Assembly (NCBI RefSeq): GCF_004300825.1
Contig: NZ_CP036250.1
Location: 2,784,001-2,848,000 of the forward strand
Length of the DNA stretch: 64,000 bases
Direction of reading: 5' to 3'
Source: Egicoccus halophilus
Lineage (GTDB): Bacteria > Actinomycetota > Nitriliruptoria > Nitriliruptorales > Nitriliruptoraceae
Positions 1-9,406 of this stretch are shown piece by piece (the stretch's first letter is position 1; each line of letters opens with the position of its first letter). A program made the translations under genes and the position numbers. Below the pieces are notes generated by a model, which ran no database searches, was not told the DNA's origin, and saw only the letters and a program-made list of their open reading frames with translations.

Positions 1-22
1 GAGATGGGCCTGTTTACGGCAA

Positions 23-250
23 GTGGCAGGAGGGCGTACGGTCGGAGAAAGAGTCCGCGCCGAGGCTGAGGAGAGCGTGGTGGGACCGCGAGCAATCCTC
101 ACGTCGGAGCTACGTGTGCAGGTTCGGCCGAGCCTCCGGGAGCGACTGGAGACCGTCGCTCAGCAGCGCGACACAACCCTCTCGGCGCTCGTCCGAACCC
201 TCATCGAGCGCGGGCTCAACAGCGAGGAGAACGATGGGCGCGAAGACTGA
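23..250 (+). CDS. Ribbon-helix-helix-like small protein
   Basis: A GTG-started frame of 75 residues. The C-terminal half (RERLETVAQQRDTTLSALVRT) has the pattern of a ribbon-helix-helix DNA-binding domain: a short strand, then two helices with a conserved T/S-x-L-V-R-x-L-I segment. Such proteins act as dimeric repressors or plasmid/element copy regulators. It is the first of a run of closely spaced plus-strand frames that look like one accessory-element transcript. The charged N-terminal 35 residues have no recognisable domain, so the true start could be further in. What it regulates cannot be told from the sequence. Confidence 0.6.
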   Translation: MAGGRTVGERVRAEAEESVVGPRAILTSELRVQVRPSLRERLETVAQQRDTTLSALVRTLIERGLNSEENDGRED

Positions 251-1825: not shown

Positions 1826-2419
1826 ACGAGCCCGAACATCACCGCGCGCGCGACGGTCCTCGGCCTCACCCGCCGCGGACGACCCATCTACGCCATCGCC
1901 GGTGGAGCCGGCGACGAGCCGCCACCCGAGCAGGGCGACGAGGAACAGGACGAGCCACCGGAGGGCTTCGTCCCGGCCGAAGAGTTGGAACGGACCCACG
2001 CACGGATGGTCGCGGCCGACAAGCGCGCCTCCGAACTCGCCGCCGCTGTCGAGGAACGCGACAGCGACCTCCGCAGCGCACAGGTCGAGCTAGCCGTCCG
2101 GCGCGAGGTCGCCGCTCGCCGAGACAGCCCCTTCGCGGACGTCGAGGTCGTACTCCCGCTGGTCCGGGACGCCATCGAGACCGACGAGGCCGGCGAGCCG
2201 GTCGGAGTGGCGGAGGCGATGGCCTCGCTGGCGGAGCGCCACCCCTACCTCCTCGCCGAGCACGCCGCTCCGGCGACCCGGACAGACCCCTCGAAGCACG
2301 CCCCATCCGGTGGTCCGGTCGGGAGCCGCATCCAGCAGCGTGCCGGCCCGACCTACGACACCAAGAAGCTCGAGACCAAGTACCCGATGCTCAGCTACGG
2401 GCGTCGGCGGCGCCCCTAG
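1826..2419 (+). CDS. Frame resembling an actinophage scaffold/capsid-associated protein, without a normal start
   Basis: The frame is open from just after the TAA at 1823-1825 to 2419. It reads about 197 residues: GLTRRGRPIYAIAGGAGDEP near the front, an acidic Pro/Glu-rich stretch, then a helical segment (about residues 55-105) and a basic tail (SYGRRRRP). The (R)GRPIYxIAGG opening is reminiscent of proteins that precede major capsid genes in actinobacteriophages; this is recall, not a search. No ATG or GTG exists at the proper front end: ATG at 1814 is cut off by TAA after three codons, and the first usable start is TTG at 1985. No capsid gene follows. Confidence 0.45.
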   Translation, partial: TSPNITARATVLGLTRRGRPIYAIAGGAGDEPPPEQGDEEQDEPPEGFVPAEELERTHARMVAADKRASELAAAVEERDSDLRSAQVELAVRREVAARRDSPFADVEVVLPLVRDAIETDEAGEPVGVAEAMASLAERHPYLLAEHAAPATRTDPSKHAPSGGPVGSRIQQRAGPTYDTKKLETKYPMLSYGRRRRP

Positions 2420-2949
2420 AAGCTCTCCTTGATGACCCTCTCGCAGTCATCAAGGCTTCCTCCGTACGGCTCAAGCCAGTCGGGAGGCGACACCGCGGGG
2501 AAGGTCAGCCACCGGGTGTCAGTTCCCTTACTACCGCCGTGCTGAGGCACTGCATGGTCAAAGGCCAACGCCTTCGGTGGGCACCACGCGTGGACGTCGT
2601 TGGGGCTGGCACCGAGGAGGAAGATGAACTCGTAGTCCTGGTCGCGAAGTTGCTGGAATACGTAAGTATTCTGCTTGTCCCACAGGGTGGAGAACTTGAT
2701 CTCCAACTTCCGCCCGTTGACAATCCGGTCATGACCGGAGTTCTGCGGCCTAGTTACGGCGAGTCCGACGGTCGTCAACCACTTCTCGACAAGGACCTCC
2801 CCGGCCTTCCCGCGTGTCCGCGAAGGCAGCGACATGATCCACTCGAAGGGAGAACCGACCCACTTCTCTGCGCCGGTTCGCGTAGCCATGATCTCGCGTT
2901 TCGCATCCTCGTTGGCGACAGCGAACGATTCCGGGAACCCGTGGCTCAC
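2416..2949 (-). CDS. Probable type II restriction endonuclease (PD-(D/E)xK)
   Basis: A 177-residue protein with GTG start preceded by TTGGAG. Around residues 47-85 it has GKAGEVLVEKWL followed by HDRIVNGRKLEIKFS. The spacing D74...E83-x-K85 with an upstream Glu51 fits the PD-(D/E)xK nuclease core. It lies 71 bases downstream of a DNA methyltransferase on the same strand, the standard arrangement of a restriction-modification pair. It would cut unmethylated invading DNA in the cytoplasm. The recognition sequence cannot be predicted. An alternative is a Holliday-junction- or Vsr-like nuclease, but the methylase partner makes restriction more likely. Confidence 0.65.
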   Translation of the reverse strand: MSHGFPESFAVANEDAKREIMATRTGAEKWVGSPFEWIMSLPSRTRGKAGEVLVEKWLTTVGLAVTRPQNSGHDRIVNGRKLEIKFSTLWDKQNTYVFQQLRDQDYEFIFLLGASPNDVHAWCPPKALAFDHAVPQHGGSKGTDTRWLTFPAVSPPDWLEPYGGSLDDCERVIKESF

Positions 2950-3020: not shown

Positions 3021-3926
3021 TCAGAAAAGGCTCACTTCGGCGTCTTCGACGGAGGAGGGCGTGGCATCGTCGCCGTTGATGTCGACGTAACTGATGCCGC
3101 GCGAGCCCAAGCGCTGCCCCATCACCTCGACTGCTTCGGAATTCGAGTCGACCATGACGAAGCGTCGGCCCAGCTCGCGAGCGACCGCGCCCGTTGTGCC
3201 GCTACCCGCGAAGAAGTCGAGAACGCGCCCATCAGCCGTCGTTGAAGCCTGGATGACCCGTCGCAGAATGCCCTCGGGCTTCTGATTCGGGTATCCGGTT
3301 TTCTCCGAGCCGTTCGTCGGCACGATGGTGTGCCACCAGACATCGGTCGGGAGCTTTCCTCTTGCTGCCTTCTCCTTGGAGACGAGTCCCGGCGCCATGT
3401 ATGGAATGCGCGAGATGGCTTCTTGGTCGAAGTAGTGATTCTTCGGGCTCTTCACGTATACGAGGATTGTGTCGTGCTTCGCCGGCCACCGGTCACGGGC
3501 TCGCCCGCCGTAGTCGTAGGCCCAGATGATTTCGTTCAGGAATGCATCTCGACCGAAGATGCTGTCGAGAAGAACCTTGCAGTAGTGCGCTTCCCGATAG
3601 TCAATGTGGAAGTAGAGAGTTCCATCCTGAGACAACAAGCGATGCGCTTCCTCAAGTCGAGGACCTATGAAGGACAAGTAGTCATCGTACGCATCCAGAT
3701 AGCCGCGCCGAGCCAACTCCGAGATGTCATACCGATTCCCACCAAAGCCCACGTGCTCGCCGGACTCCGACCGAGTTGCCTTCAGCGTGCGACGCTGCTG
3801 CGTCTTCCCCGTGTTGAACGGAGGGTCGATGTAGACCAGCTGGAACGAGGCGTCGGGCAACGCCGGAAGCACTTCGGCGTTGTCCGCATGGACGACGTAG
3901 TCCGTATCGTCCTTGAGGTTGAGCAC
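3021..3926 (-). CDS. Beta-class DNA methyltransferase (N6-adenine or N4-cytosine)
   Basis: A 301-residue methylase. The catalytic motif IV is DPPFNTG at residues 34-40. The S-adenosylmethionine motif I is VLDFFAGSGTT near residues 233-243, with the following RFVMVDSN. Catalytic motif before the cofactor motif is the beta-class order. I chose GTG at 3926 because GGAGGA lies about eight bases upstream; extending further would run into the tRNA gene. It is followed by a PD-(D/E)xK protein, so it probably protects host DNA from that enzyme. The pair sits next to tRNA-Met in a likely integrated element. Confidence 0.85.
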   Translation of the reverse strand: MLNLKDDTDYVVHADNAEVLPALPDASFQLVYIDPPFNTGKTQQRRTLKATRSESGEHVGFGGNRYDISELARRGYLDAYDDYLSFIGPRLEEAHRLLSQDGTLYFHIDYREAHYCKVLLDSIFGRDAFLNEIIWAYDYGGRARDRWPAKHDTILVYVKSPKNHYFDQEAISRIPYMAPGLVSKEKAARGKLPTDVWWHTIVPTNGSEKTGYPNQKPEGILRRVIQASTTADGRVLDFFAGSGTTGAVARELGRRFVMVDSNSEAVEVMGQRLGSRGISYVDINGDDATPSSVEDAEVSLF

Positions 3927-4051
3927 GAGAACTTCCTCCAGCAGCGGGGTAGCTGACGATTCGGGAGCAGGACGCGGCAGCGCGGCGACCCTACCCCGGG
4001 GGTTGACGCGGCTGCGAAGGAGCTGCCCGACAGCTGTGGACAAGGGCTGGG

Positions 4052-4125
4052 TGGGCCGGGCGGGGCTCGAACCCGCGGCCAAACGATTATGAGTCGCATG
4101 CTCTAACCAGCTGAGCTACCGGCCC
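4052..4125 (-). tRNA. tRNA-Met (anticodon CAT)
   Basis: A 74-nt tRNA. The acceptor stem GGGCCGG pairs perfectly with CCGGCCC and is followed by discriminator A. The D arm GCTCAGCTGGTTAGAGC, anticodon loop CTCATAA and T arm with GGTTCGAGCCC are all present; no CCA is encoded. CAT with GCGAC/ATCGT flanks fits elongator tRNA-Met, although a lysidine-modified tRNA-Ile cannot be fully excluded by eye. Its 3' end faces the restriction-modification genes and phage-like block, so it is a plausible integration site for that element. Confidence 0.93.
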
Positions 4126-4399: not shown

Positions 4400-5059
4400 T
4401 CAGGGCTGGGGCACCTCACCGAACGGGCTGGTCATCGCGGTCAGACTCGCTTCCGCACGCGCCGAGGCGGGCGCCCCGTCGACGAACACCGCGACCCGGT
4501 ACTCGTCGGTCGTGCCCGAGGCCTGCGGCACGGCCCAGGTGACCGGCAGGGACACGCTGCTGACACCGCTCGCCCCCGCCTGACCGGTCAGGACCGACCA
4601 GGACGAGGGTCCCTGCGCCTCGTCGCGGGCCCGGAACACGAACGCCTCGACCTCACACGGACACGCGGTGGCCTGCTCGGCGTGCACCGTCAGCGATCCC
4701 TGCAGCACCACGTACCCGGTGCCCCCGCGGTCCCCCGTCGCCTCGACGGTGACGGTGACCGGCACCCCGCTGCCGTCGGCGAGCGTGGTGGTGCTGTGAT
4801 CGGCGCTCACGCGGGGCAGGCCGCGGGTCAGGAATGCCGCCATCTGCCCGCGGTTGACCGCGTTGCCGGCACAGAAGCGCGGCGGGTCGGTCGCGCACCC
4901 GGCGGTGATGCCCGAGCCGGCCAGCTCGGAGATCGCGTCGTGATGGGTGCTGCTCGAGGGCACGTCGCTGAAGACGTGGTGAGCCGCGGCCGGCACGGCG
5001 ATGGCCAGGGAGGCCAGGCACAGCACCAGCAACAGGGTGCGGCGGCGGGGGGTCGGCAT
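4400..5059 (-). CDS. Secreted protein with one SLH-like repeat
   Basis: A 219-residue exported protein. Residues 1-26 are a signal peptide (basic start, hydrophobic core, AAA cleavage region). Residues 30-80 read FSDVPSSSTHHDAISELAGSGITAGC ... NRGQMAAFLTRGL in two pieces, the pattern of the cell-wall-associated repeats common in this kind of actinobacterium. A beta-rich C-terminal part of about 130 residues with a CPC motif has no family I know. It starts 73 bases after the methylamine-dehydrogenase-like gene on the same strand and may be the last gene of that operon. AAAGG precedes the ATG. Confidence 0.75.
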   Translation of the reverse strand: MPTPRRRTLLLVLCLASLAIAVPAAAHHVFSDVPSSSTHHDAISELAGSGITAGCATDPPRFCAGNAVNRGQMAAFLTRGLPRVSADHSTTTLADGSGVPVTVTVEATGDRGGTGYVVLQGSLTVHAEQATACPCEVEAFVFRARDEAQGPSSWSVLTGQAGASGVSSVSLPVTWAVPQASGTTDEYRVAVFVDGAPASARAEASLTAMTSPFGEVPQP

Positions 5060-5132: not shown

Positions 5133-6800
5133 TCAGGGCAGGTCGCTGGGGCGTCGGGGCGACCGCGGCGCGGTGCCGTCCGGTCCGGTGCCCGAGACGG
5201 CGGCCGGGCGGCGTGCGGGGCGTCGTTCGAGGATCTGCGCGCGGCCGTCGGAACCGACGACGATCGCGCCACCCTCGAACGACGCACGCCGTCGGCCGCC
5301 CGGGACGGCCACGACGTCGCTGGTCGGCAGACCGAGCCGGCCGTCGGGACCGCCGGCGTCGTCGTAGGCGGCGAGCACCGGGCCGGACAGGTGGCGGACC
5401 CCCGTCCCCTCGCCGGTGAACAGCGCTCCCTCGACGAGGTCGAGCCGGCGGCCGCGTCCACCGGCGACACTGCTCGCGGAGCGCAGCGGCCGCCCCCAGG
5501 AACCACCGGGGCCGCCAGCCTCGAGGTAGCGCACCGCCAGGTCGTCGCCGATCGGGAACAGCGTCCCGCCCCGGGTCTGGGTGACGATGCCGCGCTCGAA
5601 GCGCTGCAGACGGGCGGTGCCGGAGGTGGTCTCCTCGGCGACCGGCAGTCCGACCGCGTCCGGCCCGCTCGGCCAGCGACGGGTCGCCTCCACCACGTCA
5701 CGGCGCAGCTCGACCATGGGTCCGCCGGCGGCCTGCGCCAGCGTGCTGTGCTGGAACGAGACGATCACGCCGCCGCCGGTGCGGGTCGTGCCCATCGGGT
5801 AGCCCAGGCGCCCGCGGGGGCCGCCGAGCGCGCGGAAGCGTTCGTCGAAGGCGCCGACGACCGGTTGCGGGGTCGCCGAGCGCGAACGCAGGTAGATGGT
5901 TCCGCCCTGGTAGCGCACGGAGGTGCCGGCGCCGTCACCGACGGCGGTCACCTCGGTGGTGGGATAGCCCAGCGGCGAGGTGTCCCCGCCGAGCTCGCGG
6001 TGGACGGCGTCGATCGAGCCGTACACCGCCAGTGCACCCGTGGCCTGGCGGTAGTGGATCGAACCGTTGTCGTAGCGGCGGTAGCGCCCGCCCGCGGCTC
6101 CGCCCCGTTCCGGCGTGGTGGGACGCCCGAGGATCGAGCCGGACAGACCCAGGTCCTGGTACCTGAGGTCGATGAAGGTGGCGTCGCGTTGCGGCAGACA
6201 GGTCGAGTTGTGACTGCGGGTGCGGTTGTCCACCCGCACCGTGCGGTTGCAGGACGCGTCCCACTCCCACGGCGCGATGCAGGTCACGACCCGGCAGACG
6301 ACCTCGGTCACCCCGGCGACCTGCGTGTTGCACTGGCCGTAGCGGAAGTTGTTGCAGCAGACCCGCCGCTGGTCACAGGGATCATCGGCGCAGCGGCAGT
6401 TGCAGGACGCCGAGGGGCTGCGGTTGCAGTCGATGACGTAGCGGGCACGTCCCATGCAGAACGGCGAGTCGTCGATGCGCCACCACCCGGCGGCGTACGA
6501 CCCCGGCGGGCAGGTGTTGGCCCCGTCGTTGACGCTGCAGCAGAACGCGGTCCACCCGCTCGAGCAGGACGCCCCGGTCCCGCAGACCTGCGCGTACGCC
6601 GTCCCTGGCCGCAGCGTGTAGCGGATCGGGTCGATCGCCATCGCCGAGCCGACGACGGCGACCCGCCCCAGGAACCGGCGGCGCGACAGGCCGCGACCGG
6701 CCAGCGCCCGACCCACCCGGTCGACGAGCCGGACGCTCAGCGGGGTGTCGGTGCCGGCAGCGCGCGTCTCGACCGGGCCGGTCGTGGAGGTGGCCGTCAT
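5133..6800 (-). CDS. Tat-secreted methylamine dehydrogenase light-chain-like protein fused to LGFP repeats
   Basis: A 555-residue protein with GGAGGA before the ATG, which overlaps the upstream stop (ATGA). Residues 39-56 hold a twin-arginine motif (SRRRFLG) and hydrophobic core. Residues 72-201 contain 18 cysteines. NTCPPG, AAGWW and FCMGRARYVIDC align by eye with the disulfide-rich light chain of methylamine dehydrogenase (TNCPPG, TASW, then a Cys-rich segment). Trp106 or Trp107 matches one tryptophan of the TTQ cofactor. The position of the second is Val168 before Cys169, with Trp178 and Trp180 nearby. From about 225 to 520 there are several LGFP-type repeats (LGYP, LGLP), usually cell-wall-binding. 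MauE- and MauD-like genes upstream support a disulfide-maturation need. Enzyme activity is unproven. Confidence 0.7.
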   Translation of the reverse strand: MTATSTTGPVETRAAGTDTPLSVRLVDRVGRALAGRGLSRRRFLGRVAVVGSAMAIDPIRYTLRPGTAYAQVCGTGASCSSGWTAFCCSVNDGANTCPPGSYAAGWWRIDDSPFCMGRARYVIDCNRSPSASCNCRCADDPCDQRRVCCNNFRYGQCNTQVAGVTEVVCRVVTCIAPWEWDASCNRTVRVDNRTRSHNSTCLPQRDATFIDLRYQDLGLSGSILGRPTTPERGGAAGGRYRRYDNGSIHYRQATGALAVYGSIDAVHRELGGDTSPLGYPTTEVTAVGDGAGTSVRYQGGTIYLRSRSATPQPVVGAFDERFRALGGPRGRLGYPMGTTRTGGGVIVSFQHSTLAQAAGGPMVELRRDVVEATRRWPSGPDAVGLPVAEETTSGTARLQRFERGIVTQTRGGTLFPIGDDLAVRYLEAGGPGGSWGRPLRSASSVAGGRGRRLDLVEGALFTGEGTGVRHLSGPVLAAYDDAGGPDGRLGLPTSDVVAVPGGRRRASFEGGAIVVGSDGRAQILERRPARRPAAVSGTGPDGTAPRSPRRPSDLP

Positions 6801-7315
6801 GGTCGTTCCTCCCCCGGCTGCGCCGGGTCGATGGAGATCTGCGCGAGGACCGCCTCGACGCGGCGCACCTGCCGGTTGACGTCCCCGTGGTCGCCGAGGA
6901 CGACGTAGAGGCAGAACGCCCGACCGGCTTCGGTGAAGAAGTGCTGCCAGCCGGCCTGGTTGCGCATCGAACGCTGCAGCGAACGGGTGCTGAACGTGCG
7001 CGGGTCGAGTCGCCGCGGCAGTCCCTGGGCAGCGAACAACGGCGTGTCCGCCTCCTCGGTGCCGTACTCCAGCAGTGCCACGAACGCGTCGTCGTCGGCC
7101 ATCAGGTCGACGGCGCCGGAGCCGAAGTCGCCCCGTTCGTTGGGCAGGGCGAAAGTCGCGAGGTGGACGACGGGTGGCCCCTTCGCGGCCGCCGCGGCCG
7201 CCGCGGCCGCCGCGAAGGGTCCCACCTCGCCGTCGACGTGCATCGGCTCGCGACGGATCGCGCCCTCCCACCCCCGGGGCAGCTCCGCCCGGATCCCGTG
7301 ACCTCGCAGTTGCAT
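6797..7315 (-). CDS. Hypothetical protein with a ten-alanine run, mau-like operon
   Basis: A 172-residue soluble protein starting at ATG with GGAGGA upstream. A polyalanine run at about residues 35-44 is encoded by three near-identical GCGGCCGCC units. The rest is mixed alpha/beta with no motif I recognise (central ...FSTRSLQRSMRNQAGW..., end EVNRQVRRVEAVL-like helix). Its stop overlaps the start of the light-chain-like gene (ATGA), so the two are translated together. It may be a cytoplasmic partner or chaperone for that exported protein; this is inferred from position only. Confidence 0.65.
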   Translation of the reverse strand: MQLRGHGIRAELPRGWEGAIRREPMHVDGEVGPFAAAAAAAAAAKGPPVVHLATFALPNERGDFGSGAVDLMADDDAFVALLEYGTEEADTPLFAAQGLPRRLDPRTFSTRSLQRSMRNQAGWQHFFTEAGRAFCLYVVLGDHGDVNRQVRRVEAVLAQISIDPAQPGEERP

Positions 7316-7326
7316 GTCGTCCTCCT

Positions 7327-7941
7327 TCAGACGGCTGCGCCGACGAACAGCGCGGCCGCGACCGCGGCGACGGTGACCTCGGTGATCCGCTGGGCCAACG
7401 AGCTGCGCCGGTCGAGCGCACGGTGGTAGCGCTGCAGGCCGGCCGGGTCCCGCAGCCGCGCGGTGGTCAGCAACGGCAGGGCACGCACGAGGCCGAAGCT
7501 CGCCCCGAGCAACGCACCGGTCGCGGTCGAGCCCGAAGCCAGCGCGAGCAGCAGCAACAGGTGCGTCGCAGCGGTCGGGATGCGGGTGAAGACGGCGCCG
7601 CCGAGCTGGGCCCCGAAGCCGGCGCCGTACACCCAGCCACGGAAGTCGTCCAGCCACCGCTCGTCGACCTGCCGCTGCCAGCTGGGAAGCCGGCCGGGCA
7701 TCCGGCCGGCGTCGACCAGCAGGGCGCCCACCGCGGCCAGTCCGAGCAGCACGAGCCCGAGCGGACGCGGCAGCTCCCAGCCGGCGGCGGCGCCCAGCCA
7801 GGCCGCCAGCCGGCCGACCGCACCTGCCAGCCCGAAGACCACCGCCCCACCGATGATCGACGCGACGAGGTAGGCGGCGGCCGTCACCGACCACCGCTGT
7901 CCTCGTGAGGCCTCCCCGACCGGGGAGATGCTGGAGAGCAT
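7327..7941 (-). CDS. Polytopic membrane protein of the mau-like operon
   Basis: About 204 residues with five or six hydrophobic spans. A conserved-looking loop reads DDFRGWVYGAGFGAQLGGAV followed by FTRIPTAATHLL. Two starts are possible: ATG at 7947, which touches TGAGGG, and ATG at 7941, which has the same TGAGGG six bases upstream; I prefer 7941. No cysteine pair typical of CcdA/DsbD is visible, so redox transport is not shown. Its place between the MauD-like gene and the secreted cysteine-rich protein suggests a membrane role in making or exporting that protein. Confidence 0.65.
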   Translation of the reverse strand: MLSSISPVGEASRGQRWSVTAAAYLVASIIGGAVVFGLAGAVGRLAAWLGAAAGWELPRPLGLVLLGLAAVGALLVDAGRMPGRLPSWQRQVDERWLDDFRGWVYGAGFGAQLGGAVFTRIPTAATHLLLLLALASGSTATGALLGASFGLVRALPLLTTARLRDPAGLQRYHRALDRRSSLAQRITEVTVAAVAAALFVGAAV

Positions 7942-7950
7942 CGACATCCC

Positions 7951-8016
7951 TCAGGGAGACCAGGAGCTGCGCAGTGCCGCCACCGTCGCGAGGGTCAGGC
8001 CGAGTGCCGGGATCAC
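7951..8016 (-). CDS. 21-residue hydrophobic peptide overlapping the MauD-like stop
   Basis: A GTG overlaps the MauD-like stop (GTGA). It reads VIPALGLTLATVAALRSSW then SP: a short hydrophobic helix with a basic end. The stop lies 9 bases before the next preferred start. The exact four-base overlap and position inside a coupled operon argue for translation, perhaps to carry ribosomes to the next gene. The peptide could also be a functional membrane micro-protein. Length alone gives no proof. Confidence 0.4.
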   Translation of the reverse strand: MIPALGLTLATVAALRSSWSP

Positions 8017-8798
8017 GGTCGCGTCCCGGTGTCGTCGCCTGCCGCGGGCGCGCCCGCGCCGCCGACGGTGACCTCGTCGCCCGGCGCGAACTGCTCGGCC
8101 CGGCGGTACAGACTCGGGTCGCCGGGCTCGATGCCCGCGGCGAGCAGGTGCCGGTCGGCGTCGCGCTCGCGACGGGCGTCGGCCGCGGCCTTGTCGCGCC
8201 CCGCCGCACCCTGCAGCAGCAGGCGGCGCACGGCCGGCCAGGTCCCGGCCGTGCCCTCGCCCCGGACCCGGCCCGTGGCGCCGTCGACGTGGACCACGTA
8301 CGGACTGCCCGGCACGTCGTGGGCGTCCCAGGTCGCGTCGCTCATGACCACGGTCGCGCCGGGCGGCGCCAGACGGGCGATCGCGTCGCGGTCCTCGTCG
8401 GGCTCCTCCCGGGTGACGACCACCACCCGGGTGTCGCCCGGGACGTCGGGCGCCTCGAGCGCGGGCCAGTACGGCTTGCAGCCGGCGCAGGTCGACGACA
8501 GGAACACCAGGACCGTGTCGTGGCGCACCTCGCGCACGCGCAACGCGAGCACCTCGCCGTCGGGACCGACGCCGACGACGTCGTCGGCGAGCCGGCCGTC
8601 GACCGGCGTGGCCGGCGCCGCGACGGCCGCCGTCGGCGCCCCGGACGACGCGGGCGCGCCGGCGGGCTGGTCCGGGTCGATGCCCGCACCGAGCTCGTGC
8701 AGCCGCCGCAGGATCTCGGCGTGACTGCGTAGCAGTCCGACGACCAGCACGGTCTGCACGGCGACGACGACGGCGAGGAGTACGACCACGACCATCAT
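8013..8798 (-). CDS. MauD-like membrane-anchored thioredoxin-fold protein
   Basis: A 261-residue protein. Residues 2-22 form an N-terminal membrane anchor, residues 40-68 an Ala/Pro-rich linker, and the thioredoxin-like domain follows. The active site is C104-A-G-C107 in LSSTCAGCKPYW. DVPGSPYVV supplies the cis-proline region. In methylamine-utilisation clusters MauD is thought to guide disulfide formation in the cysteine-rich light chain, together with MauE. Here it overlaps the MauE-like stop by four bases and lies upstream of an 18-cysteine secreted protein, so the same role is likely. A TlpA/ResA-type redox protein is the alternative. Confidence 0.75.
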   Translation of the reverse strand: MMVVVVLLAVVVAVQTVLVVGLLRSHAEILRRLHELGAGIDPDQPAGAPASSGAPTAAVAAPATPVDGRLADDVVGVGPDGEVLALRVREVRHDTVLVFLSSTCAGCKPYWPALEAPDVPGDTRVVVVTREEPDEDRDAIARLAPPGATVVMSDATWDAHDVPGSPYVVHVDGATGRVRGEGTAGTWPAVRRLLLQGAAGRDKAAADARRERDADRHLLAAGIEPGDPSLYRRAEQFAPGDEVTVGGAGAPAAGDDTGTRP

Positions 8799-9406
8799 GC
8801 GCGACCTCCGGCGCCCGGGTCGGACGGCGCCACCCGCGGCGCGGGCAACGTGATGCGGCGGGTGGCGGCCCGCAGGTCCGGCAAGGCGCCCAGCAGTTGC
8901 TGGAGCGAGGCGACGGCCACCAACGCCAGGACGGCGGCGACCAGGGTCGGGAGCGCGGCGAGGCCCAACCCGGCGGCCGGCGACCCGAGCAACGCCAGGT
9001 TGGGCGCCAGGGCAGCCACGGCGGCCGCGACGGTCACCACCGCGTCGATCGTGACGTGCAGCGGCCCGGCGGGCGCGGCGGCCTGCCCGAAGCAGCCACA
9101 CGAAGCACCACGGCGCCACTGCCGCGCGGCGACGAGCGTGAAGGCGCCGTAGGCGAGGGCCAGGCCGACCAGCGGCAGGCGTCCGCCGACGACCAGCACC
9201 AGCACCGCCAGCCCGAGCTCGCCGGCACCGATCGTGCGCACCAGCAACCGGGCGCGGGCGCCGCGCCAGCCGAGCGCGTCACCGGCGTCCTGGGGACGCC
9301 GCAGCTTGGCCAGTCCCGCGGGCAGCAGCAGACCGGCGCCGAGCACGACGGCGACCAACAGCAACTCGGCCGCCAGCGGCGACCACGCCTCGAGTACCGC
9401 GTACAT
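8795..9406 (-). CDS. MauE/DoxX-like redox-associated membrane protein
   Basis: A 203-residue membrane protein and first gene of the minus-strand operon. It has four to six hydrophobic spans. The motif GASCGCFGQ near residues 96-104 matches the CGCFG seen in MauE-type proteins, whose paired cysteines pass reducing or oxidising equivalents across the membrane. AKLRRP after the first long span is also typical of the family. GGAGGG precedes the start. The neighbouring MauD-like protein overlaps by four bases. The most likely substrate is the secreted cysteine-rich protein three genes downstream. Confidence 0.8.
   Translation of the reverse strand: MYAVLEAWSPLAAELLLVAVVLGAGLLLPAGLAKLRRPQDAGDALGWRGARARLLVRTIGAGELGLAVLVLVVGGRLPLVGLALAYGAFTLVAARQWRRGASCGCFGQAAAPAGPLHVTIDAVVTVAAAVAALAPNLALLGSPAAGLGLAALPTLVAAVLALVAVASLQQLLGALPDLRAATRRITLPAPRVAPSDPGAGGRA

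What the first reader, a model, noticed from the sequence alone, without database searches (positions are those of the whole stretch)
6200..6600. Second TTQ tryptophan appears to be missing
In an eye alignment, AAGWW (Trp106/107) matches the first TTQ tryptophan, but the residue before the cysteine equivalent to the second one is Val168. Trp178/180 are nearby. If correct, the cofactor cannot form normally and the domain may be structural, or may use another crosslink.
Basis: inference. Interest (0 to 1): 0.55.

Follow-up and report, generated by a model that had tools for sequence, protein, structure and literature searches.

The report
Cofactor-less protein with selenium folding helper
A secreted, cysteine-rich bacterial protein that loosely resembles the light chain of an amine-oxidising enzyme lacks the second tryptophan needed for that enzyme's cofactor, and the genes beside it include a folding helper that appears to carry selenocysteine where the known version has its one conserved cysteine.

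Summary
In 58 distinct relatives Trp106-Trp107 is invariant, and no other column is always Trp. Three relatives have no other Trp in the domain, and Trp178/Trp180 are not conserved, so TTQ cannot be the family's cofactor. No register gives a Trp there.

The domain is not a Pfam light chain; resemblance to MauA/AauA is weak. It belongs to an actinobacterial cassette: MauE, MauD, a MauF-like membrane protein, an unknown protein and this Tat-exported Cys-rich protein. No MauB or MauG was found in the genome.

The stronger result is next door. The MauF-like gene is called short because an in-frame TGA replaces MauF's only invariant cysteine (WSPCG becomes WSP-TGA-G): TGA in 24 of 25 first-set sequences, Cys in one. 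A SECIS-type hairpin follows, and the genome has tRNA-Sec and SelA. Cassette genomes without SelA have Cys or lack the gene. Best reading: a TTQ-less, disulfide-rich surface protein matured by a selenocysteine version of the Mau machinery. A 2026 catalogue of 119 selenoprotein families lists no MauF.

The parts
5133..6800 (-).
   Evidence: translation; TAT signal TIGR01409; LGFP x5
6186..6605 (-). Cys-rich, light-chain-like domain, aa 66-205
   Evidence: alignment of 58 relatives
6480..6485 (-). Trp106-Trp107, invariant in 58 of 58
6297..6299 (-).
6261..6269 (-). Trp178 and Trp180, not conserved (37 and 35 of 58)
5133..6131 (-). LGFP wall-binding repeats (C-terminal module; replaced by other modules in relatives)
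6797..7315 (-). Gene Y, cassette protein of unknown family
   Evidence: 24 of 29 loci; no Pfam family over cut-off
7327..8016 (-). Gene X: MauF-like membrane protein, read through TGA with Sec at residue 22; GTG start overlaps the MauD stop
7951..7953 (-). In-frame TGA (predicted Sec codon) at the MauF WSPCG cysteine
7911..7928 (-). SECIS-model hairpin UCUCCCC-GGUC-GGGGAGG, 29 nt from the UGA to the loop, -11.3 kcal
8013..8798 (-). MauD-like thioredoxin-fold protein with CxxC
8795..9406 (-). MauE membrane protein
   Evidence: PF07291 44.8 bits, cut-off 27

Best explanation
The domain is a secreted, disulfide-locked relative (or look-alike) of the TTQ dehydrogenase light chain that makes no TTQ. 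It is exported by Tat, carries a variable C-terminal cell-wall or sugar-binding module (LGFP here), and is folded by a dedicated membrane relay: MauE, MauD (CxxC) and a MauF-type protein. In most lineages the MauF-type protein is a selenoprotein with Sec in place of MauF's only invariant cysteine. Shown by sequence: loss of the second Trp, the conserved cassette, the in-frame TGA, Sec/Cys exchange, the SECIS-type hairpin, tRNA-Sec and SelA. Inferred: that Sec is inserted; that the relay oxidises or shuffles the disulfides of this protein; that the mature protein is displayed on the cell surface as a binding or structural head.
For: 58 relatives: only W106/W107 always Trp. Cysteines lost in perfect pairs, 79-137 (47 with both, 0 with one, 11 with none) and 88-201 (49, 0, 9), as expected of disulfides. 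Cassette: MauD 25, X 24, Y 24 of 29 loci, MauE 24 of 29. C-terminal modules vary: LGFP, ricin-type lectin, CWB2, B-lectin, RCC1. X is MauF-like. WSP-TGA-G in 24 of 25, Cys in 1; in 26 further loci TGA 21, Cys 1, no X 2, masked 1, truncated 1. 23 of 23 tRNA-Sec genomes whose site could be read have TGA. SelA in 27 of 30 cassette genomes; the three without are the one with Cys and the two without X. SECIS-model hairpin at or below -7.5 kcal in 41 of 47 TGA sequences against a synonymous-codon null of 17.0 (max 28); weak (-3.5) or absent in the two Cys forms. Ser codon AGC 47 of 47 at one stem position against 20% of 407 Ser codons elsewhere in X. ARAGORN tRNA-SeC(tca) in the genome.
Against: Kinship to MauA is weak: no PF02975 hit, hhalign prob 12.5%, global hhalign fails, AlphaFold2 pLDDT 48 and Z only 2.2-2.9, second model pLDDT 34. 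The covarying cysteine pairs are not those I recall for MADH. A plain alifold of the TGA set showed no more structure than codon shuffles. There is no protein or selenium evidence. That these helpers act on this protein rests on gene order alone. What the mature protein does is unknown. Sequence counts are not independent events.
Confidence: 0.72

Rival explanations
1. The domain does carry a protein-derived cofactor, but another one: Trp106 or Trp107 is oxidised or crosslinked to a Cys or Tyr (as Cys and Trp are in CTQ), so the protein is a redox enzyme without TTQ.
For: The WW pair is 58 of 58, as are R120, Y121, D124, F152, R153, Y154 and G155, which is more conservation than a plain scaffold needs. 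The first hydroxylation of Trp in MADH is thought to be autocatalytic (PMC7876137, passage).
Against: No conserved cofactor-forming enzyme sits in the cassette; no heavy chain; no MauG in the own genome. The cysteines already fall into disulfide-like pairs.
Confidence: 0.1
2. The domain is not related to TTQ light chains at all. It is an independent Cys-rich fold that uses the same folding helpers, so asking for a second TTQ tryptophan is the wrong question.
For: No Pfam or PDB sequence match, hhalign prob 12.5%, different covarying Cys pairs, unusable second model.
Against: 1 of 200 and 2 of 200 shuffles reach the profile score; the top 11 of 14 structural rows are TTQ light chains; the neighbours MauE, MauD and MauF-like are those of mauA.
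Confidence: 0.3
3. The TGA in X is an ordinary stop: a short peptide ends there and a second protein starts at the next ATG or GTG.
For: Standard gene calling gives this. In the window an ATG lies two codons after the TGA.
Against: Most loci have no start codon right after the TGA (GGC GAG TCG ATG). Upstream and downstream frames together match MauF across the motif. Cys replaces TGA in the SelA-less genome G392. SECIS-type hairpin.
Confidence: 0.03
4. TTQ forms in the window's own lineage with Trp178 as partner, although other members have lost it.
For: Trp178 is present in the Nitriliruptorales rows shown.
Against: Trp178 is 37 of 58 and outside the aligned light-chain core (core ends at model residue 111, protein residue 176); no heavy chain or MauG in this genome.
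Confidence: 0.03

Closest known systems
Methylamine and aromatic amine dehydrogenase light chains (MauA, AauA; PF02975)
   Same: Exported, Cys-rich, a CPPG segment, a Trp near TTQ Trp57, neighbours MauE and MauD, weak fold match
   Different: No PF02975 match, no second Trp, extra cysteines and different covarying Cys pairs, fused wall-binding modules, no MauB or MauG found
mau maturation genes mauF, mauE, mauD (Paracoccus denitrificans plasmid, L058)
   Same: All three kinds present in a compact cassette; MauD CxxC; position of the MauF WSP-C-G motif kept
   Different: MauF-like protein is shorter at the N-terminus and has TGA (Sec) at the motif; an extra gene Y; no heavy chain
MauE/MauD-containing candidate RiPP clusters of Streptomyces (decRiPPter, PMC7794033; passages read)
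   Same: MauE, once with MauD, beside a product with at least 8 Cys, and no other mau genes
   Different: There the client was proposed as a RiPP precursor; no MauF-like or selenoprotein is mentioned in the passages read. Whether it is the same family could not be checked (supplements not open)
Bacterial selenoproteins with thiol/disulfide roles (Table 1 of PMC13188914 read)
   Same: TGA at a likely redox Cys, Cys homologues, a downstream SECIS-type hairpin
   Different: None of the listed families is MauF or has a WSPUG motif; the nearest DsbD-type entry is TsoB, a rhodanese/DsbD fusion with two Sec

Membership tests
TTQ dehydrogenase light chain | PF02975 match | tested here: not met
   none for P0001 at E<=1; 0 of 30 members at E<=1; not at this place in the own genome at E<=10
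TTQ dehydrogenase light chain | First TTQ tryptophan (Trp57 of MADH) | tested here: inconclusive
   W106/W107 invariant; posterior to Trp57 0.33 and 0.36
TTQ dehydrogenase light chain | Second TTQ tryptophan (Trp108) | tested here: not met
   no candidate column is Trp; 3 of 58 have no Trp but WW
TTQ dehydrogenase light chain | Heavy chain partner MauB (PF06433) | tested here: not met
   0 of 24 cassette genomes; positive control rings
TTQ dehydrogenase light chain | MauG-type TTQ-forming enzyme (PF03150) | tested here: not met
   own genome none at E<=1; 1 of 24 cassette genomes
TTQ dehydrogenase light chain | Light-chain fold | tested here: inconclusive
   model pLDDT 48.4; top 11 of 14 rows are light chains, Z 2.2-2.9
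TTQ dehydrogenase light chain | Six-disulfide pattern | tested here: inconclusive
   covarying pairs 79-137, 88-201, 133-148; that MADH has six disulfides is in PMC7876137, which pairs is only recalled
Mau maturation machinery | MauE (PF07291) | tested here: met
   44.8 bits, cut-off 27
Mau maturation machinery | MauD-type CxxC thioredoxin-fold protein | tested here: inconclusive
   hhalign P 9.1e-10, both Cys invariant in 13 of 13; TIGR02661 cut-off not reached
Mau maturation machinery | MauF homology over most of the length | tested here: met
   hhalign prob 97.7, P 2.4e-12, 176 columns
Bacterial selenoprotein (gene X) | In-frame TGA aligned with a conserved Cys of homologues | tested here: met
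Bacterial selenoprotein (gene X) | Natural Cys forms, and Cys where Sec machinery is missing | tested here: met
   G392 has Cys and no SelA; L039 has Cys, Sec status of that genome not tested
Bacterial selenoprotein (gene X) | SECIS-model hairpin after the TGA | tested here: met
   41 of 47 at <=-7.5 kcal, null mean 17.0, max 28
Bacterial selenoprotein (gene X) | Sec machinery in the genome | tested here: met
   tRNA-Sec 56.5 bits, ARAGORN SeC(tca), SelA E 8.8e-151; SelB and SelD not searched
Bacterial selenoprotein (gene X) | Selenium found in the protein | not testable with these tools
   needs mass spectrometry or 75Se labelling

The most novel reading that the evidence does not exclude
The cassette is a selenocysteine-dependent pathway that not only sets the disulfides of a TTQ-less light-chain fold but also builds a new protein-derived group on the invariant Trp106-Trp107 pair (for instance a Trp-Cys crosslink), giving actinobacteria a wall-anchored redox protein of a kind not yet described.
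Probability: 0.08. Interest if true: 0.92.

Novelty: new variant of a known kind. Interest (0 to 1): 0.68.

Why it matters
What MauF does in methylamine dehydrogenase maturation is, as far as I recall, unresolved. Finding its single invariant cysteine swapped for selenocysteine marks that residue as the likely redox-active one and makes the role testable. It also points to a selenoprotein family that the 2026 catalogue of 119 families does not list, hidden because the gene is called short at the TGA. And it shows light-chain-type maturation genes serving a protein that cannot make TTQ, which argues that MauD, MauE and MauF serve folding rather than cofactor chemistry.

Tried and rejected
My own first idea, Gln156 = Trp108 from the 12-residue Cys spacing, was not upheld either: posterior only 0.05, Ala162 scored best at 0.43; I leave the counterpart open. 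Fold by AlphaFold2: model 1 pLDDT 48.4, model 2 from another member 33.9 and not used. Sequence searches of PDB found nothing. Viral contigs: 12 pattern matches, no relative. PF02975 over 396 phylum genomes: 4 weak hits, none over cut-off. RNAalifold on the TGA set gave no support; the per-sequence SECIS test that followed did, so the structure claim rests on the published hairpin model, not on alignment covariation.

Rows dropped: from the hits in 24 of 41 relatives, L024, L027 and L028 look like alcohol-dehydrogenase chance hits by their alignment and L025 is a 28-residue fragment with stops; L023 and L026 are partial. One search took spurious second matches for three loci and was redone. 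Of the 29 genome-contig loci, five gave no X site: L031, L051 and L053 end at contig edges, L036 is a lone second copy without a cassette, and L037 has MauD followed directly by Y.

Novelty searches in papers: (listings). Passages seen in PMC7794033, PMC2474590, PMC7876137, PMC13188914, PMC5029168, PMC1794560, PMC12013277. PMC13188914: outline, section 5 and parts 1-2 of 3 of section 7 (113, 119-121). Haft and Tolstoy 2025, which by its title describes new selenoprotein neighbourhoods, is not held, so it may already mention this. NCBIfam has no match for full-length X at E<=1.

Full report
What is there. Trp106, Trp107, Val168, Trp178 and Trp180 are at the stated places. The window lies in a 3.98 Mb, 97.5% complete genome; the nearest named relatives include Nitriliruptoraceae.

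Is the second tryptophan missing? I collected relatives from 41 near genomes (24 with a hit, some of them chance), the genome-contig collection (29 loci) and 396 genomes of the phylum (30 with a hit), giving 58 distinct domains. Trp106 and Trp107 are 58 of 58. Column 168 is mostly V and never Trp, Trp178 is 37 of 58, Trp180 35 of 58. Three members have no Trp in the domain but 106/107. Between columns 116 and 177 there is one Trp in one member (column 151), plus one in a lineage-specific insert of 12 members. So whatever the register, no second conserved Trp exists.

Which position would it be? Profile alignment to eight MauA/AauA chains prefers Cys169 = Cys121 (0.39) over Cys169 = Cys109 (0.02), and the residue ranges of structural alignments of a poor model imply the same (3c75_L: model 18..111 against 32..128). 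Val168 is then opposite His120. The true counterpart of Trp108 is not resolved.

Is it a light chain? Pfam says no, PDB sequence searches find nothing, hhalign gives P 0.0023 over 48 columns. Against that, 1 of 200 free and 2 of 200 Cys-fixed shuffles reach the profile score, and the top 11 of 14 structural rows are TTQ light chains, at low Z (Foldseek alone not significant). I file it as 'like a light chain', not as a member.

Cysteines. Several cysteine columns are lost together without exception: 79 with 137, 88 with 201, 109 with 195, 178 with 186; 133 and 148 nearly so. This is what disulfide pairs do. These are counts of sequences, not of independent events.

The cassette. MauE, MauD-like, X, Y and the Cys-rich protein stand together in Nitriliruptorales, Acidimicrobiales, Intrasporangiaceae and others; in Solirubrobacterales the order is MauE, Cys-rich, MauD, X, Y. 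X is MauF-like (DsbD_2 matches in 10 of 21 members). C-terminal modules of the Cys-rich protein vary: LGFP, ricin-type lectin, CWB2, B-lectin (just under its cut-off), RCC1, or almost nothing (10-12 residues in the seven loci L050-L056). MauB was found in 0 of 24 cassette genomes (control); MauG-type PF03150 not in the own genome, in 1 of 24.

Selenocysteine in X. Looking upstream of the called X ORF, the loci read W-S-P-TGA-G, exactly MauF's invariant WSPC79G, C79 being the only invariant Cys of four MauF. In the first set 24 of 25 sequences (23 loci and the window) have TGA and one, a Jatrophihabitans, has Cys. I then predicted that cassette genomes without Sec machinery would have Cys. tRNA-Sec scores 56 bits or more in 25 of 30 cassette genomes (26 are over the 47-bit cut-off, which other tRNAs also reach). 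SelA is in 27 of 30, against 231 of 396 in the phylum. The three without SelA: G392 has Cys (TGC); G164 and G384 have MauE, MauD, Y and the Cys-rich protein but no X in 16-17 kb. All 23 tRNA-Sec genomes whose site could be read have TGA; G016 and G019 could not be read, G286 is masked and G214 truncated at the site, the last two having SelA but no good tRNA-Sec hit.

SECIS. With the published bacterial model (3-9 nt loop, at least 4 bp, G in the first two loop positions, 16-37 nt from the UGA, -7.5 kcal or lower; PMC13188914 section 5), 41 of 47 distinct TGA sequences qualify; synonymous-codon resampling gives a mean of 17.0, at most 28, in 200 trials, and the mean energy (-10.9) is reached by none. 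The two Cys forms give -3.5 and none. The loop starts 29 or 33 nt from the UGA in 43 of 47. A second stem just after the TGA uses Ser codon AGC in 47 of 47 against 20% elsewhere in X, although one of the two Cys forms keeps 5 of its 6 pairs. A plain alifold was not supportive.

How it works, my commitment. MauE, MauD and Sec-MauF form a membrane thiol/selenol relay that oxidises or rearranges the many disulfides of the Tat-exported protein, which is then held at the surface by its binding module. Shown: the sequence features above. Inferred: direction of electron flow, client identity, surface display. The function of the mature head and of Y is not known.

Novelty. Earlier text on MauE/MauD without other mau genes beside a Cys-rich product exists for Streptomyces (PMC7794033, passages). 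No paper found in my searches joins MauF with selenium, and Table 1 of the 2026 catalogue has no such family; one key 2025 paper could not be read.

Noticed in passing
window 7951-7953 (-) within 7327-8016: In-frame TGA in the MauF-like gene at MauF's invariant Cys, with SECIS-type hairpin and Sec machinery: a likely selenoprotein called short by standard ORF finding.
   Followed up: yes
L108, L109, L037: Cassettes with MauD, Y and the Cys-rich protein (MauE too) but no MauF-like gene found; the two testable genomes (G164, G384) also lack SelA.
   Followed up: partly
window 6797-7315 (-): Gene Y, a 150-170 aa cassette protein with no known family, possibly a cytoplasmic chaperone or partner of the Tat substrate (guess).
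   Followed up: partly
window 4400-5059 (-): Downstream secreted protein with a weak SLH match (15.1 bits, cut-off 20.8), kept next to the cassette in near relatives (L029, L030, L031, L033).
   Followed up: no
L036: A second copy of the Cys-rich domain with a ricin-type lectin module and no cassette beside it, in an assembly that also has a full cassette (L035).
   Followed up: no
window 3021-4082 (-) and 2416-2949 (-): An ORF with a DPPFNTG motif that looks like a DNA adenine methyltransferase (recalled motif) beside a 177-aa ORF that could be its restriction partner.
   Followed up: no
L103 (G384): The only one of 24 cassette genomes with a CCP_MauG match (31.6 bits with neighbours, cut-off 25.6); it has neither SelA nor the MauF-like gene.
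   Followed up: no
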